This document shows, piece by piece, positions 8,962 to 16,695 of a stretch of 64,000 nt of DNA (position 1 is its first letter; the number at the start of each line of letters is the position of its first letter). The notes beneath the pieces are model-generated. The model was not told the origin of the DNA. It saw only the letters and a list, made by a program, of their open reading frames with translations, and made no database searches. This stretch comes from Gonium pectorale (lineage: Eukaryota > Chlorophyta > Chlorophyceae > Chlamydomonadales > Volvocaceae): positions 790,525 to 854,524 of the forward strand of contig LSYV01000031.1 in NCBI GenBank assembly GCA_001584585.1. Direction: 5' to 3'. The translations under genes and the position numbers were made by a program.

Positions 8962-11900
8962 GGTGGCAGATGTTGGGGCGGGGCGGTTGGAGCCGCGCAG
9001 CAGTTGGAGAGGCGCTTGAGGCGGGGCAGCGGGCGATGGGCGACTTGCAGGGGGTGGGGCGGAGTAGGGGTATTTCTGATTTGGACGGTGGCAGAGGGAG
9101 GTGATGAGGGTCTGATGTCCTCCTGGAGGAGCGGGGGAAACGGGTCGGGAAGAGGGTGCTGGGCTATTCTGGCGGCCAGGCGGCGTGATGCGTTAGGGGC
9201 TCAGGCTGGAGAAGCGAAGGGCGTCGGAGCTCGCGGCCTTACGGTGAGCGTGGGCGCGGCACGTGGCGCTTCGAACGACGTGCGTTGGTGGCGCTTGGGC
9301 GAGGGCCATACTTGGGTATTGAGGGCCTGTGAGGGTACGGCGCTACGGTATGCCTGCACGTACTGCTTGCGTTATCTGTGGACGTCAGACTCCTCCGTGT
9401 CGCCGTGAGGATGCCGGTGTCGGGCCCGGACTTGCCAGCGCTGCCGGCGCTTTGGTACTCAGGATCGTTTGCGGCCCGTTCCTCCCCCTCATGGAGGGTG
9501 GCGCGGGGCTGCGGCATAAACGGGCGGCGCGATGGAGCAGACCGCCAAGGCCATGGTTGCGTGCCGTACAAACCATGCGTGCTTTCGTTGCCGTTCGGCC
9601 TGAGTGTGCGCTGGACTGTGGTTGGTGCGAACGCAACGGGCTGTTCCGTATGACGATCCATCCAATGTCGTAAATCCTTGTCTGAATGCTTAATCGCCTT
9701 CGCACTTCGCCTGCCGCGTGCCCCCACGCCATGGGCAAAATGACTTGCATGCCTACCGACGTCGATGCACAAGAGTCACAGCCATTTCTCGTGCGCCTTG
9801 CTTGCCAAGCCGTTTCTGCGTACCGGTAATGGCGCTGCAATGTGCCGGCACTCAGCGAGGCCGCCCTGGGCTTACTCCTGCACACCACACGACTGGTACT
9901 AGGGGAACTAGGGGGACCTGGCACAAGGGGCGCCCTCGTTTCACAAGTATGAAGTATCTGCCGTGAGCACTCTTCCCGCAAACCCTGTGCTGACACATGA
10001 GACGCCGTACACCCCGTAACGACCCTGCTGTCCTCGCCACCGAGACCCGACGGGTCGGGCCTCCAGAGCCGACACACCGCGAGCCCACATGCCGAGCCGG
10101 TTGCGCAGGTTGCGCCTTTGTCCGCGGCCCATGCGCAGCTTCAATGTCCGAACGCAGGCCCAAGACAGTCTGTGCCTGCGATAGATGCTCTTATCGATGT
10201 AGTGTGACGAGCCGCGGCGTCGCAGCTGTTACGGTAGTCTTAATGCATGGTGTTACATACGGGAGCGGTTTATACAGAGCTGTCTGACGATGTGGTTCCC
10301 GCGGCGCTGGATGCACCATTTCCGGGGCGGAGCCAACCAAACAAACGCATGCGCTGTGCCTTGCCTCTGTGTGTGCGTAGATCTTCAAACGTGTTTTGCG
10401 ACCACGGCGGGGCGTCTCAGCTCCGCCACGGCGTCCGCGCCAACTCCGGTGGTGCCGTACTAAGTCAGATCCTCCTCCAACCAGACCCTCCATGCCAGTG
10501 CAACAGCCGCTTGACGGCCGTTGGGAGGTGCCCACGCGGACCACACAACGCCCCTCACCAGCCCTACGTCCTATCCCGGACCAACATCCATATGGAGGAA
10601 GGGCTTCCAAAGGTAAAAGCCACACTCAAATACGTGTAGACGCCGATGCGCCGTTGTGGCCTCGGGCCGCATTGGGCACCACGCATGCCGCCAACTCGTT
10701 CGGACCGGCGCAGGTGCATGCGGTCGGCAATCCGTACGGCATGCTATGGTCAAGTGTGTGTCGACTGCCAAATCAACATGCGAGCACCAGAGGTCCCGTA
10801 CGGAGAGCGCACGGCGTTGGGTACGACAATGGCGTACAATCAACATTTGAGTATGCGGCGCGTCAGAGGTGCGCCGGTCATGAAAAAAGACAGCCGGCAC
10901 GGGACCCGAGCAGATGCGCGCCATAGCCCTTCGGTGGACTTGCGCCAAAAGGTAGGGAGCACCTGCTTGGCCTGGCAGCGCTTTAGGAGGGGCCCTCGAC
11001 TCTACAATTGCTGTCCCATCAAGTGCTGCCCACACGAGCTCGTGGTCGTGCGGGCCGGCCCTTCCCCCTCCCTGCGCACACCCCCATTTGCTTTCCCTGT
11101 CCTCCCGGGTGAATGTCGGACAGGCAGGCAACTGCCGCAGACACATGTGGGTCTTACTCACTGCGCCGCCCCTGGCGCGTGAGGTCTATCATCAATACCC
11201 ACCGCCGGCCCCACGGCCGCTCCTCGAGAGGTCGCACCCCTCAGGCCGCACGGATGCGACCCGGCTCCGTACTCGGGGATGCGTTACGCGAGCTCCGGCT
11301 CCAGCCCCGGGCACAGCGGACGGCGCCACCGCAAGGAGCGACCGCGACGGGCAGCAGCGCCACCGCAACTGTCGCCGCAGTTGCCGCCGCGCCGTGGGCC
11401 ATGGTCGGTGGTGGCGGGGGACCGGCGGCCGGGGCGCTCCAGCGCGAGCCCCATCGCCCACTCAGTAGTCGAGGCTGCCCTCGTCGTACCTACGCAAGAG
11501 AGAGAAGGAACCCGGGTTCAAAGGCGCAAAGGGCTGTCAAGGTACAGGCGATGTCGCGGTTCGGGATCGAGGGGGCTGAGCGGTGGGAGCGCGCGCTGCT
11601 GGACAGAGTGTACGGGTGAGAGCGTACACAGTGCGGTATGCCGTGTTACCTCCCCTGAAATCCCGTCATTGCGCGCTGCTCATGTTCCCACCCTCCGGCC
11701 GTCTTTTGCAACGCAGAAGTCCCGCTTTGAGCCTCAAGACCGAGTTGTGGAATGCCCAGCATCAAACCTCGCCATAACGCCAACGCCATTCGGCCCCGTC
11801 TGCCATCTGCACAGACTGCGTTTGGTCGCCTCGCCCATCGGACGCCCCCTAAAGCCTTCCTCCTTTCTCCCCGCACCATCCCCTCCCGATACCCCCGCTC

Positions 11901-11971
11901 AGCATACGCCGATGCATACCTCCGCCTTACACCTCCTCAGCCCCCACTCCGGACCCCAGGTTCCCTCGCCC
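8962..11971. other. Gene-free stretch upstream of the fragment and 3' of the kinase gene
   Basis: About 3 kb without a credible coding frame on either strand. The open frames present have no domain signatures, no exon chains in phase and no coding-like composition. The part next to 11972 should include the 3' UTR of the minus-strand kinase gene. Confidence 0.5.
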
Positions 11972-14900
11972 TCACATGTTGTCCATCGCGTCGTCGATGT
12001 ACTCGTCCGTCTCCACCGGGTTGACGTAGCCCGGCGCCCCCACGCCCACGTGCCGCGCCTCCTCGACCAACCGCTTGATGTCATCCACGCTCTGTTGGGC
12101 AGTTGGGTTTAGGGTGTCGGGCTCTGGGTACGGGTGGACGCTGGGGGGCACTCGTACTGGAAACGTCGGGGGTTCTGCCGTCGTGGTTTGGTTTCCGGAG
12201 ATTGGGTACGGATGGGTTGGGTGTCGGGAGGCTGGGAGGCATTCCTGTTAGAAACAATGCAGCAGGTCCATGCGTTTCCTTTCCAATTTCGCAGCGGGCG
12301 CGTGGAGCGGAAGCCGGAGTCCTGCGTAAGCCATCGTAAGTCGTAAGCGTCGCAGCCCGCCCCATTGTGTGTGGACAACAGGAGCGGCTGGTATGACGCG
12401 GACACAGCTCAAGGACCCCAACGCAACGGCAGGGAGCCCCGTACCCAAAACCCCCATGCCGCAAACCGCCGTGCGGCCCCGCTGCCACTGGCCTCCACTC
12501 CACCACGCTGAACCTGCAATCCTCCCCCTGATATTGCTTCCCAACCGAATCTACTCCGCCCCGCATTCCCGCGCCACGCCGGCCGCACCTGCAACCCCTC
12601 GGGCGGCGGCTGCACTCGGTCGTTCATCTCCCGCACGCCCGGCGGCAGGCCCTTGAGGTACCACTTGTGGTTGTAGATGCCGTCGACGGTGATCCGCTTG
12701 GCGGGGTCGGCCACCAGGATCTTGGACAGCAGGTCCTTGCAGTCGTCCGACGCGCGCACGTGGGGCGGGATGCTGTAGTCCACGTGCAGGATCCGCTGTG
12801 GCGTGCGTACGAGGGCGGCGTACAAGCGCGGCAGGCGTAAGATGCGGTCCGGGGGTTCACGAGAACGGGAGTCTGGTCAGGACGGGCTAGCATCCGGCAC
12901 GGAGGCGCCGGGAGGAGGCGAAGGCGCTCGATGGGGCGGCGTGCGTACACGGCATGTTGGGCGGCGTTTAGGCCGGTTCAGGGAGTTCGTGAGCAGCACG
13001 GAAATCTGATGAGGCCGGGCTGGCATCCGGCAGGGAGGTGCATGGAGAAGGCGTATGTGTGCACGCAAGGGGTGCGTGAAGCCCGGAGGAGAAAGGGTGC
13101 GGGTCCTTCACCTTGGCCCCCCACTGTTCCGCTGCGCACTCCCATACCCCTCTCGCAGTGGAGGCACGCGCCGCAGGCTTTCCCATCAGAACTGCACGTC
13201 GACAGCTCAGAGACCAACATATAGGGCCCTTCGCCCAACCAACCAGGTACATACACTATGCGGCGTTTATTTCACATCCTACATTTGGCTACATTTGGTG
13301 CCACCTTAACCCTGCTAAACACGTTAACCCGTTATATACCCCGAATGGTGTACCCCCTGCCAATTGTGCGCCCATAATGTACCCCAATGGTGCGGTGCCC
13401 CACCAACCCAACAGCCCTTACCCACCACATGCAGCTGTAGGTTGTCGCATCCAATGGCATGTCGCACCTGATTTTACCGGCCGTCTACATCTCCGCCATG
13501 ACTACCACAAGGCGTTCTTGTTCCTATGCAATTCGGTACTTCGCGTTGCAGCCCGTTTTCCAACTCTTCTAACGCCCCCTCACCTGGATCATCTTCTGCA
13601 GCTTCTGGTTGTCGTGTTTGTCCTCGGGCCGCTCAAAGGGGTAGGCGCCCACCAGCATCACGTACAGCATCACGCCGCAGCTCCAGATGTCGGCGATCTG
13701 CGGAAGAGAGGGGGGCCCGGGCGCCGCAGCGGGAGCCCAGCGAGGGAGAGGACAGGACCAAGGTGAGGTTCGTTGCGCACCTGCCCTGCATGCCGCGCCA
13801 CGCACACCGCCGAACCCGAGCGGCAAACATAAGTTGTTCACACACTCAGGAATGGCCACACAGCAGGCCAAAGACAGCCATGTGGGCGGTGGCAGAACCA
13901 GACAAAGCATACACGCTGCCGCAAGCGCGGCGAGGCAGCTAGCCTCAGGTCCCCGCCGCTCCTCGCCCGAGCCGCTCCTCCGCCCCGCCGGGTCCCATTC
14001 CGCCAGCCGCCACCGGGCCGCGCGCCGCACCCCCGCCTCACGGCTCGCCCCCACGCCACGGGCTCATCGCCGCGGGTTCGCGCTGCGCTGCCCTTCGCCC
14101 AGCCCCCGAGCGTGGGGTCCGGGGGCTGCCCCATCGGAGCGGAGCGCTGACCGGGCCACATGGGTACGTTCGGCCATTCGCGGTCACCTCGCAGCGACGG
14201 GTCGCACTGGGCGCTGACAAGGCCGGCGCGCGGGCCCGGCATCCCCCCAACACCATCAACGCGCGGCAACCAAAGGTATATGTGTGTGTGACCCGCCAGG
14301 GGTGCCCGGTGCTGCCGCAACCCGAGGCCCCCGCTGACGGGCGGTGCGGCCGGTGCCCACCCAGCCCCGACCGCTTCGCGGCCGGCTGCTGGGACAAGAC
14401 CTGCGCCGCAACCCAGCCGAGGACGTGCGAAGGCAGGAGGGCCTCCCTCCCGCCCGTGGGCGTCACCCCAACGAGCGGGAGCTGCTTCAGGGCACAACGC
14501 CCTGGAGCACTGGCTAGGACGCGTGGGGAGGCTTCGCAGTCCTCAGCGGCGTAGGCCGAGGGGACAGCCGGGCCCAATGCGCGTGCTCGCCGCCTGCCGT
14601 CGCCCTGTTCCGGCTGCACGCGACGCGGCGCACACGCCCCGTCCCTCACGGGGCGGCGCCGCTCGTCACTCCCTCCCCCCACACCCACCGCGCCTCGCCT
14701 TACGGGATCGTGCGCGGCACGGTCCCCAGGACCCGGGTCCGCACACAAGGCTCGAGAGCGCGGTGTGCATACGCTGCTACCCTCAGCGGCACTCGGGGGG
14801 GCTCGACATCCCATTTGGGTTCGACACGCTACCTTGCCATTGTAGACCTTGCCCTTGGTGGTCAGAATGACCTCGGGGGCCAGATAGGCCGGCGTGCCGA

Positions 14901-16695
14901 CGCGTGACCCGGGGGCGGACTGGAACTTTTCGTGCTGTGGGCGACACGGCCCGAGCAGCGATGGCGGCGGGTTCCGGCGGGGCGAGGCGGGGGAGGGGGC
15001 CCGGCGGGGCGAGGAGCGCCGGACGGGGCGGGAGAGAGGGAGAGGGAGGGGCGGCAGCGGGTGTGAGTAGGGGTGGCGGGTGGATTTACCTTGGCGTCAT
15101 ACTCGTTCTCGCAGAGGAACACCTCAGGGGCGGTGTAGTATGCGGTGCCGACCTTGGATATGGGTGCAGAGTGCAGGGTTTCGTGCTGCGGCGGGGCAGG
15201 AGTCGGCCGAGGGGGCGTCAGGCAAAGGAGCGACGCGGTGCATCCTGTGCGTGGCCTCCGAGATTACTAGGCGCTTCCAAAAGGATGTAGCACACAAGGA
15301 GCTACACACAAGAGCTGGTAAGCCCGTGCGGCCCGATAGGAAGCGACCCTACTCCGGCCGGCCAGGCGGCGCGGCTCGATAGCAGCACGCTCCAGGAGAC
15401 CTTGGCTCAAAGCAAGGCCCGGGACACGCCGGTGGATGGCCAATCAGCCAGCACGGCAAAAAGGACAAACCTTCGAGTACCCGAAGTCGCAGATTTTTAC
15501 GAGCGGCCGCGGGCTCGAGTCCAGCAGCGTGTTCTCCAGCTTGATGTCCCGGTTCACCACGCCCTGCGCCCGCACCCGGTGGGTAGGCAGGATTCGGTCA
15601 ATGGAAGAGACGGTGGGCCCGGGAACCTCCCAAGCCAGGGAGCGGCGGGGCGTCAAAACCAGAGCTCATGGCGACCGAAAGGATCCAAGATCAAAAACAT
15701 GCGGCGTCCACGTCCCGCATGCCGTCACACACGACCTCCGACACACCAGGCAACAAGCGCCTTCCCGCTCCTCTTCCCCGCTCGCGAGGCAGCGCACCCC
15801 CGTACCCCATTCACTCGGCACAATTCGGCACAACGCGGCACGCCATGGCACGTTATGGTCATATTCCATCATTTCCCCTTCCCCCAACCCCTGCGTTGCC
15901 CGAGCCCGCCCACGGCCGCAGCGGGCACAGACCGCCCCAGCCCGCGATCACGCAGCGGACCTAGGGTCCTCACCATGCGGTGGCAGTAATCCAGGCCCAC
16001 AATGAGCTGCTGGAAGAACCAGCGGGCCTCGTCCTCTCTCAAGCCGTTCTTCCGCACCACGTACTCGAACATGTCGCCGCCAGGCGCGTACTCCATGACG
16101 ATGCACAAGTGCGTGGGCGTGAGGAAAACCTATACAGGTTGAGGCCACCAGGACGGATGGATTGTTGTGGTCCCTACGTAATGCAACCTTAGCCATGCGG
16201 GCCGCCCTAAGCGCGATGTGGTCGGGAGTGGACGACGGGTGCCCATGCCGGACGCCGGGCGTTACGGCAAGTTGCCCACGCGTCGCTGGCCGGGATGTCG
16301 CTCACCTCCCGGAACTGGACGATGTGCGGGTGTACGAGACATCGATGGTTGATAATCTCACGCTCCACATACTTGGTAATCTGTTGACGGGTCCGGGGCG
16401 TGTCATTAGGGGCAGCCCACGCGTGGGCAGGCAAGGACTCCGCACCTTGTCTCCCCGCTCAATGAACTTGACGGCCCACGTCTCCCCCGTGTGCTTGTCC
16501 CGGGCCAGCTGAACAAAGCCGAACGTCCCGCTGTTGAGGTCCTTGATCTACACAGCGCGGAGCAGAGACGCCGCTGTCAGCACCCTTAGGCCTAGGGCCT
16601 AAAATGGCAAATGCAGGGCGCTGCAAAGCTTCCACCTTCTCATAGCGGGGATGGTTAGCAATTGGCTCTGGCCTTCCAGGCTGTCCCTTGTTCAT
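11972..16695 (-). CDS. SnRK2-type serine/threonine protein kinase with alternative activation-segment exons
   Basis: Exons on the minus strand: 16636-16695, 16446-16547, 16306-16380, 15974-16129, 15471-15563, then 15090-15185 or 14833-14934, then 13584-13697, 12589-12795 and 11972-12091. All junctions are phase 0, giving 340 or 342 residues, the usual SnRK2 length. Visible kinase features: a glycine loop NSGTFG, the AVKF lysine, the helix-C Glu in VEREIINHR, the hinge [14 protein letters not shown], catalytic loop [11 protein letters not shown] in [32 protein letters not shown], and a C-terminal [18 protein letters not shown]. The tail [16 protein letters not shown] matches the SnRK2 regulatory box and ends acidic. 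The family acts in stress, osmotic and nutrient signalling (for example sulfur in Chlamydomonas); the target here is unknown. Oddities: two homologous APE exons, Asn for the first loop Gly, and Asn for the His of HRD. The start ATG is followed directly by RYEKIKDL after the first intron. Confidence 0.93.
14833..14934 (-). other. SnRK2 activation-segment exon, variant B
   Basis: This 102-base exon (34 codons, phase 0 at both ends) is flanked by cacag and gtagcg. It reads [11 protein letters not shown], then [12 protein letters not shown], then a [10 protein letters not shown] end. It is the more canonical SnRK2 version. It lies 155 bases downstream of variant A in the transcript. Either exon joins the DFG exon to IADIWSCGV in frame; including both would put two APE motifs in one kinase. 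Confidence 0.88.
15090..15185 (-). other. SnRK2 activation-segment exon, variant A
   Basis: This 96-base exon (32 codons, phase 0 at both ends) is flanked by cgcag and gtaaat. It reads [11 protein letters not shown], then [12 protein letters not shown], then a CENEYDAK end. It follows the DFG exon directly in the transcript order. It aligns with the next exon (variant B) over its whole length, with 17 of 32 residues identical by my count. The P+1 loop is TAYYTAPE instead of the usual TPAYLAPE. Confidence 0.85.

What the first reader, a model, noticed from the sequence alone, without database searches (positions are those of the whole stretch)
14833..15185. Two tandem, homologous activation-segment exons in one SnRK2 kinase gene: likely mutually exclusive splicing
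Directly seen: two adjacent exons of 96 and 102 bases, both phase 0 at both ends with GT-AG flanks, each encode HE....SAP.S.VGT..Y.APEV.L and end in Y..K, with 17 of 32 residues identical. Known: a kinase has one activation segment, and it sets activation and substrate choice through the P+1 loop. Inference: either exon can complete the kinase, so the gene makes two isoforms. They would differ in the phosphorylatable loop (HSAPIS versus QSAPGS) and in the P+1 loop (TAYYTAPE versus TPAYLAPE). Including both would keep the frame but should ruin the fold. I know of no report of this arrangement in SnRK2, but could not search.
Basis: partly seen in the sequence, partly recalled or inferred. Interest (0 to 1): 0.92.

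Follow-up and report, generated by a model that had tools for sequence, protein, structure and literature searches.

The report
Kinase gene with swappable activation segments
A stress-kinase gene of the colonial green alga Gonium carries two alternative versions of the short piece that switches the kinase on and shapes what it acts on, and splicing most likely uses one or the other, so one gene can make two differently tuned kinases.

Summary
The minus-strand gene (exons 16695..11462) is a SnRK2-type kinase with two adjacent phase-0 exons, A (15185-15090, 96 nt) and B (14934-14833, 102 nt). Each encodes the whole activation segment; 17 residues are identical. Either completes an open frame (348 or 350 aa). 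The window is Gonium pectorale: public protein GPECTOR_30g243 equals the window's A+B translation letter for letter.

Exon A is unlikely to be a relic. Near-identical copies (26-31 of 32 residues) occur in Volvox reticuliferus and on three unnamed contigs, where flanking residues fit AG and GT splice sites. In V. reticuliferus one locus tag, Vretimale_3824, has two annotated proteins: one joins exon 5 to A to exon 7 without B, the other uses B. That is the predicted mutually exclusive pattern. B's core is found in 72 of 120 listed relatives; A carries a conserved, different P+1 loop (GTAxYTAPE versus GTPAYLAPE).

Not shown: RNA from Gonium. Its annotation strings both exons together; a model of that protein leaves exon A disordered. 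Kinase activity of form A, and whether Chlamydomonas has exon A, are untested. Verdict: probably a real, old, mutually exclusive activation-segment swap; a new variant of a known kind.

The parts
16636..16695 (-). exon 1, start codon, [20 protein letters not shown]
   Evidence: identical in P0001
16446..16547 (-). exon 2, glycine-rich loop and ATP-binding lysine ([10 protein letters not shown])
16306..16380 (-). exon 3
15974..16129 (-). exon 4
15471..15563 (-). exon 5, catalytic loop ([10 protein letters not shown]) and DFG; ends at ..DFGYSK
15090..15185 (-). exon 6A, activation segment version [33 protein letters not shown]
   Evidence: conserved in P0011, P0121, P0122, P0123
14935..15089 (-). 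155-nt intron between the two alternative exons, 58% C, GT-AG
14833..14934 (-). exon 6B, activation segment version [35 protein letters not shown]
   Evidence: its core [15 protein letters not shown] occurs in 72 of the 120 listed relatives
13584..13697 (-). exon 7, starts [14 protein letters not shown]
12589..12795 (-). exon 8, end of kinase domain
11976..12091 (-). exon 9, SnRK2-box-like stretch ([12 protein letters not shown]) and acidic tail
11462..11489 (-). exon 10, last codons and stop
   Evidence: matches the C-terminus of P0001

Best explanation
The gene encodes one SnRK2-type kinase whose activation segment is supplied by either of two tandem exons, chosen by mutually exclusive splicing. 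Exon B is the standard and probably ancestral version. Exon A most likely arose by tandem duplication of exon 6 before Gonium and Volvox separated, and has been kept under selection. Both versions keep the two serines that match the activation serines of plant SnRK2s and the GTxxY.APE frame, so both kinases should be activatable. Version A replaces the P+1 loop GTPAYLAPE by GTAxYTAPE. By protein kinase A numbering (recalled) that changes Pro202 to Ala and Leu205 to Thr, two P+1 pocket positions. Form A is therefore expected to differ in substrate choice and in which upstream kinase or phosphatase handles it. Shown: both exons, their frame, splice sites and conservation, and separate A and B proteins annotated at one Volvox locus tag. 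Inferred: regulated one-or-other splicing in Gonium, the history, and the biochemical difference.
For: Gene model and open frames; chance control. Exon A conserved in 26-31 of 32 residues in four other sequences, with the column pattern [26 protein letters not shown]. P0121, which reads through the upstream intron, matches Gonium in exon 5 and in 31 of 32 residues of exon A, but in only 23 of 85 aligned intron positions. In P0121-P0123 exon A is preceded by Gln and followed by Val, as CAG|exon|GT requires. V. reticuliferus Vretimale_3824 has two proteins, P0004 (B) and P0011 (exon 5 joined to A joined to exon 7). The A-form model (P0011) is a kinase fold, mean pLDDT 86.5, pTM 0.87, closest solved structures SAPK10 and OST1/SnRK2.6. 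Published criteria for mutually exclusive exons are met; in that study only 6 of 1705 Drosophila X-chromosome genes had exons annotated as not exclusive with these features (PMC3228551, passages). Volvox carteri cyn23 is an RT-PCR-tested precedent in this algal group (one section read).
Against: No Gonium RNA was available. The public Gonium protein contains both exons and Gonium AUGUSTUS models used RNA-seq intron hints. The 155-nt A-B intron is longer than a 65-nt intron of the same gene, so steric blocking is unlikely; no frame shift punishes double inclusion or double skipping. A search for pairing between introns was inconclusive: one of four tests z -2.46, three between -0.57 and -0.76. 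P0011 ends by reading past exon 8 (..EGLQVCQ), so the only A-without-B protein seen lacks the C-terminal SnRK2 box. In the A-form model residues 169-180 of the loop are below pLDDT 50.
Confidence: 0.78

Rival explanations
1. Exon A is a cassette exon: B is always included and A is sometimes added, giving a 382-aa kinase with a 32-residue insertion after DFGYSK that blocks or delays activation.
For: The annotated Gonium protein P0001 has exactly this composition, and Gonium annotation used RNA-seq intron hints. Inclusion keeps the frame.
Against: V. reticuliferus P0011 uses A without B. In the model of P0001 residues 161-206 fall below pLDDT 50 while B builds the P+1 loop, although such an insertion would score low in any case. 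A is conserved at the residues an activation segment needs (GT..Y.APE), which a spacer would not require. A gene finder reporting one transcript could string two homologous exons together whatever the true splicing (inference).
Confidence: 0.12
2. Form A is not a second working kinase but a regulatory by-product: A inclusion goes with retention of intron 8 and gives a truncated protein or a decayed transcript that lowers kinase output.
For: P0011 ends at ..EGLQVCQ, past the exon 8 end, without the SnRK2 box.
Against: Exon A is conserved at the protein level across five sequences; a mere decoy would not need P+1 and APE residues. P0011 is one annotated protein and may be a partial transcript model.
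Confidence: 0.12
3. Exon A is a decaying duplicate never spliced in.
For: Of the 120 relatives listed (of 4361 matches) only two, P0001 and P0011, hold an A-type segment.
Against: Open frame, splice-compatible ends and sequence conserved in V. reticuliferus and three unnamed sequences; A is spliced in an annotated V. reticuliferus protein. The database is clustered at 90% identity (tool description), which can hide A forms.
Confidence: 0.04

Closest known systems
JNK kinases MAPK8/MAPK9, exons 6a/6b
   Same: One kinase gene, two alternative exons used one at a time, with altered substrate binding (PMC8699841, table passages; PMC8329584, passages).
   Different: JNK exclusivity rests on interlocked U2 and U12 splice sites; here all sites are GT-AG and none looked U12-like by eye. 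From recall, the JNK exons lie after the activation loop; here the phosphorylated loop and the P+1 loop themselves are swapped.
Volvox carteri cyn23 (cyclophilin), mutually exclusive exons 4/5
   Same: Same algal group; two tandem alternative exons; RT-PCR gave fragments of the expected sizes for both variants (PMC4378016, section 10 read).
   Different: Not a kinase. The terms kinase and SnRK do not occur in that paper's main text; its supplements were not searched.
Plant SnRK2 kinases (OST1/SnRK2.6, SAPK10)
   Same: Closest solved relatives by sequence and by fold; paired activation-loop serines matching Ser171 and Ser175 (PMC8465348, passages; positions matched by the alignment).
   Different: One activation segment in the solved sequences; a review of SnRK2 regulation has no word beginning 'splic' in its main text. 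The catalytic loop is NRD here and HRD in OST1.

Membership tests
Mutually exclusive exon pair | Similar length | tested here: met
   32 and 34 codons; published default limit is 20 aa difference
Mutually exclusive exon pair | Compatible splice sites and same reading frame | tested here: met
   AG|exon|GT, phase 0 at both ends of both exons
Mutually exclusive exon pair | Homologous sequence | tested here: met
   17 identical residues, score 71 versus 22 for the best unrelated candidate in the window
Mutually exclusive exon pair | Transcripts carry exactly one of the two | tested here: inconclusive
   V. reticuliferus annotated proteins P0004 (B only) and P0011 (A only) fit; Gonium annotated protein P0001 has both; no RNA reads available
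SnRK2 kinase family | Kinase domain closer to SnRK2 than to SNF1/AMPK or CIPK kinases | tested here: met
   B form: SRK2E, SRK2I and SAPK10 at 359-371 bits; next is SNF1-like ssp2 at 184 bits, CIPK23 at 177
SnRK2 kinase family | SnRK2 box and acidic C-terminus after the kinase domain | tested here: met
   Alignment of the B form to SRK2E extends through [12 protein letters not shown] to residue 340; acidic residues follow. Absent from the truncated P0011
SnRK2 kinase family | Activation by phosphorylation of the loop serines | not testable with these tools
   Both serine positions are present in A and B; phosphorylation needs experiment

The most novel reading that the evidence does not exclude
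A volvocine SnRK2 gene uses splicing to exchange its entire activation segment, phosphosites and P+1 pocket together, so one kinase gene yields two enzymes that differ both in what switches them on and in what they phosphorylate; the switch has been kept since before Gonium and Volvox diverged and may let a nutrient or osmotic stress kinase be re-aimed without changing its expression.
Probability: 0.45. Interest if true: 0.85.

Novelty: new variant of a known kind. Interest (0 to 1): 0.68.

Why it matters
Kinase isoforms made by mutually exclusive exons are known, but I found no report of the activation segment itself being the exchanged unit (searches: an open-access library only, judged from titles and abstract starts apart from the papers named in this report). 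If confirmed, it is a natural pair of otherwise identical kinases differing only in the segment that sets activation and P+1 preference, in algae that can be studied in the laboratory. It would add a regulated exon choice in a signalling gene of green algae, and would show that a public Gonium gene model joins two alternatives into one probably non-natural protein.

Tried and rejected
Chance similarity: rejected by the scan of 2599 candidate segments.

Decaying exon: judged unlikely because of conservation.

Donation from a paralog: the single segments closest to A by alignment score are of the type HELMHSQPKSKVGTPGYIAPEVILNK.YDGK (19 identical, score 89) and not B of the same gene (17, score 71), so the sequence alone does not prove that A descends from B. 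Against a donor: of six Gonium SnRK2-like loci examined, five run unbroken across the GK|IADIW boundary where A and B both end, and L050 breaks near there. None showed a credible second activation segment within about 3 kb; the one extra match at E 0.5 or better over this region was an opposite-strand match with a stop codon in L029, E 0.13. I favour in-place duplication, unproven.

RNA docking between introns: four duplex tests against 60 shuffles each, one at z -2.46, the others -0.57 to -0.76; two of the four overlap. The C-rich and G-rich composition is a likely cause; not used as evidence.

A viral contig scan with P0001 found nothing; not informative for an alga. Their source is given only as 'lgn'; what organism or sample they come from is unknown.

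Limits: the protein database is clustered at 90% identity, and a full-length A form is about 95% identical to its B form (17 differences in 350), so A forms can hide inside B clusters; absence of A from Chlamydomonas and other listed species is not shown. One search listed 120 of 4361 matches; the pattern could read the segment in 107 of 120 (13 not parsed, recounted); a second pattern parsed 105, of which 65 have the B core. No B-only structure model was made as a control. The V. reticuliferus genome paper was not held, so how P0011 was predicted is unknown; a paper on V. africanus used HISAT and StringTie for gene models (one section read). Passages on tandem exons (PMC9013439), on splicing in the Chlamydomonas cell cycle (PMC7534427) and on Chlamydomonas SnRK genes (PMC6344539) gave nothing on this arrangement.
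Full report
What is there. The gene lies on the minus strand from 16695 to 11462. I placed 11 exons (ten positions, position 6 present twice), all introns GT-AG. Using exon A gives 348 aa, using exon B gives 350 aa, both open to the stop codon. Exon A (15185-15090) and exon B (14934-14833) both follow DFGYSK and both precede IADIWS, at phase 0. They share 17 aligned residues and 56 of 96 aligned bases; only 11 of 32 third positions agree, as expected of an old duplication. GC at third positions is 0.78 (A) and 0.85 (B), within the range of the eight other exons computed, 0.55-0.99. In a scan of all 2599 open AG-to-GT segments of 87-117 nt on both strands of the window, A scores 71 against B; apart from B and pieces of B the next best is 22.

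Whose genome. The window lies in a 129-Mb, 352-contig assembly with no name given. The public protein GPECTOR_30g243 of Gonium pectorale (P0001) equals the translation of the window's exons with A and B both included, letter for letter. So the window is Gonium pectorale or something indistinguishable from it in this protein.

What the gene is. The best solved relatives of the B form by sequence are SRK2E/OST1, SRK2I and SAPK10 at 359-371 bits, against 184 bits for the next kinase, SNF1-like ssp2. The alignment to SRK2E runs on through a SnRK2-box-like stretch, with acidic residues after it. It belongs to the SnRK2 family. Sources name two relatives, P0030 (Coccomyxa) and P0099 (Tetraselmis), 'sulfur stress regulator'. 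That suggests but does not show a role in sulfur starvation. Which Chlamydomonas gene is the ortholog was not tested.

Exon B is the standard form. Its core [15 protein letters not shown] occurs in 72 of the 120 relatives listed; the rest hold other single segments, A, or a form the patterns did not catch. An A-type segment occurs in two of the 120, P0001 and P0011.

Exon A is conserved. A whole-database search restricted to the exon A region returned three proteins: P0001, P0011 and P0121. A second search set for short proteins returned two more, P0122 and P0123. The five A sequences, Gonium included, share [26 protein letters not shown]; identity to Gonium is 26 of 32 (V. reticuliferus P0011), 31 (P0121), 31 (P0122) and 29 (P0123). 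P0121 and P0122 are identical in exon A and may be close kin, so they are not independent. P0121-P0123 look like mechanical reading frames on unspliced contigs whose source is given only as 'lgn'; I do not know the organism or sample. In each, exon A is preceded by Gln and followed by Val, which CAG|exon|GT gives when read through. P0121 also contains exon 5 followed by its intron read in frame. That intron has 327 nt against 285 in Gonium and agrees in 23 of 85 aligned positions, while exon A agrees in 31 of 32. So exon A has been kept while its surroundings diverged.

Evidence for one-or-other use. V. reticuliferus locus tag Vretimale_3824 has two annotated proteins. P0004 reads DFGYSK-B-IADIW, P0011 reads DFGYSK-A-IADIW; outside that exon they are identical up to EGLQ at the end of exon 8. 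P0011 then ends VCQ, as if reading into the next intron; in Gonium that read-through would give a different and longer tail. An end inside an intron suggests a transcript-based model more than an ab initio one, but the genome paper was not held and this is inference. It also means that the only A-without-B protein seen lacks the SnRK2 box.

Evidence the other way. The Gonium annotation includes both exons, and its authors used AUGUSTUS with RNA-seq intron hints (PMC4844696, passages). A gene finder that reports one transcript could join two homologous exons if each had supported outer junctions, so this does not prove double inclusion, but it does not exclude it. Modelled, the A+B protein has mean pLDDT 80.0 and pTM 0.80, with residues 161-206 (all of A and the start of B) below 50, and B forming the P+1 loop. 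The A-only V. reticuliferus protein has mean pLDDT 86.5 and pTM 0.87; its loop residues 169-180 are below 50 and residues 181-200 average about 76-77. Nearest solved structures are SAPK10 and OST1. Low confidence in an insertion without relatives is expected, the A+B protein is also longer at its C-terminus, and no B-only model was made, so the models are weak support.

How exclusivity might be enforced. Steric crowding is unlikely: the 155-nt intron between A and B is longer than the gene's shortest, 65 nt. No frame shift results from double inclusion or double skipping. Intron pairing tests were inconclusive. A splicing regulator acting on the two exons or on the C-rich intron between them (58% C) is the remaining guess.

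What the swap should do. In plant SnRK2.6, Ser175 phosphorylation is required for activity, and Ser171, Ser175 and Thr176 can be phosphorylated by a Raf-like kinase (PMC8465348, passages). The two serine positions are serine in A (HSAPIS) and in B (QSAPGS), in different surroundings. The P+1 loop differs at residues that in protein kinase A (recalled) line the P+1 pocket: Pro to Ala and Leu to Thr. These A residues, GTA and YTAPE, are the same in all five A sequences. The most likely effect is a changed P+1 preference and a changed fit to upstream kinases and phosphatases. This is inference.

Compared with what is known. The pair meets the three published criteria for mutually exclusive exons (PMC3228551, passages). 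In that study only 6 of 1705 Drosophila X-chromosome genes had exons annotated as not exclusive with these features. Volvox carteri cyn23 is a precedent in volvocine algae. JNK exons 6a/6b are the nearest kinase case and use interlocked U2 and U12 sites. I found no report of an activation-segment swap in SnRK2 or another kinase in the searches, which cover open-access papers only and were read mainly as listings. I file it as a new variant of a known kind.

Noticed in passing
window 17078 to about 20571, + strand: The head-to-head neighbour encodes a protein with Torus and RRM domains, the make-up of the spliceosomal CWC2/RBM22 family (family name recalled); the two start codons lie about 0.4 kb apart. 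Its full gene model was not worked out.
   Followed up: partly
window 11462-16695: The public Gonium protein GPECTOR_30g243 (382 aa) contains both alternative exons and is probably a faulty gene model.
   Followed up: yes
P0011, C-terminus: The V. reticuliferus A-form protein ends ..EGLQVCQ, apparently reading into intron 8, and so lacks the SnRK2 box; it is not known whether A use and intron 8 retention are linked.
   Followed up: partly
window 15471-15563: The catalytic loop reads [10 protein letters not shown], Asn in place of the usual His of HRD; four other Gonium SnRK2-like loci (L029, L039, L046, L050) also have NRD while L024 has HRD.
   Followed up: no
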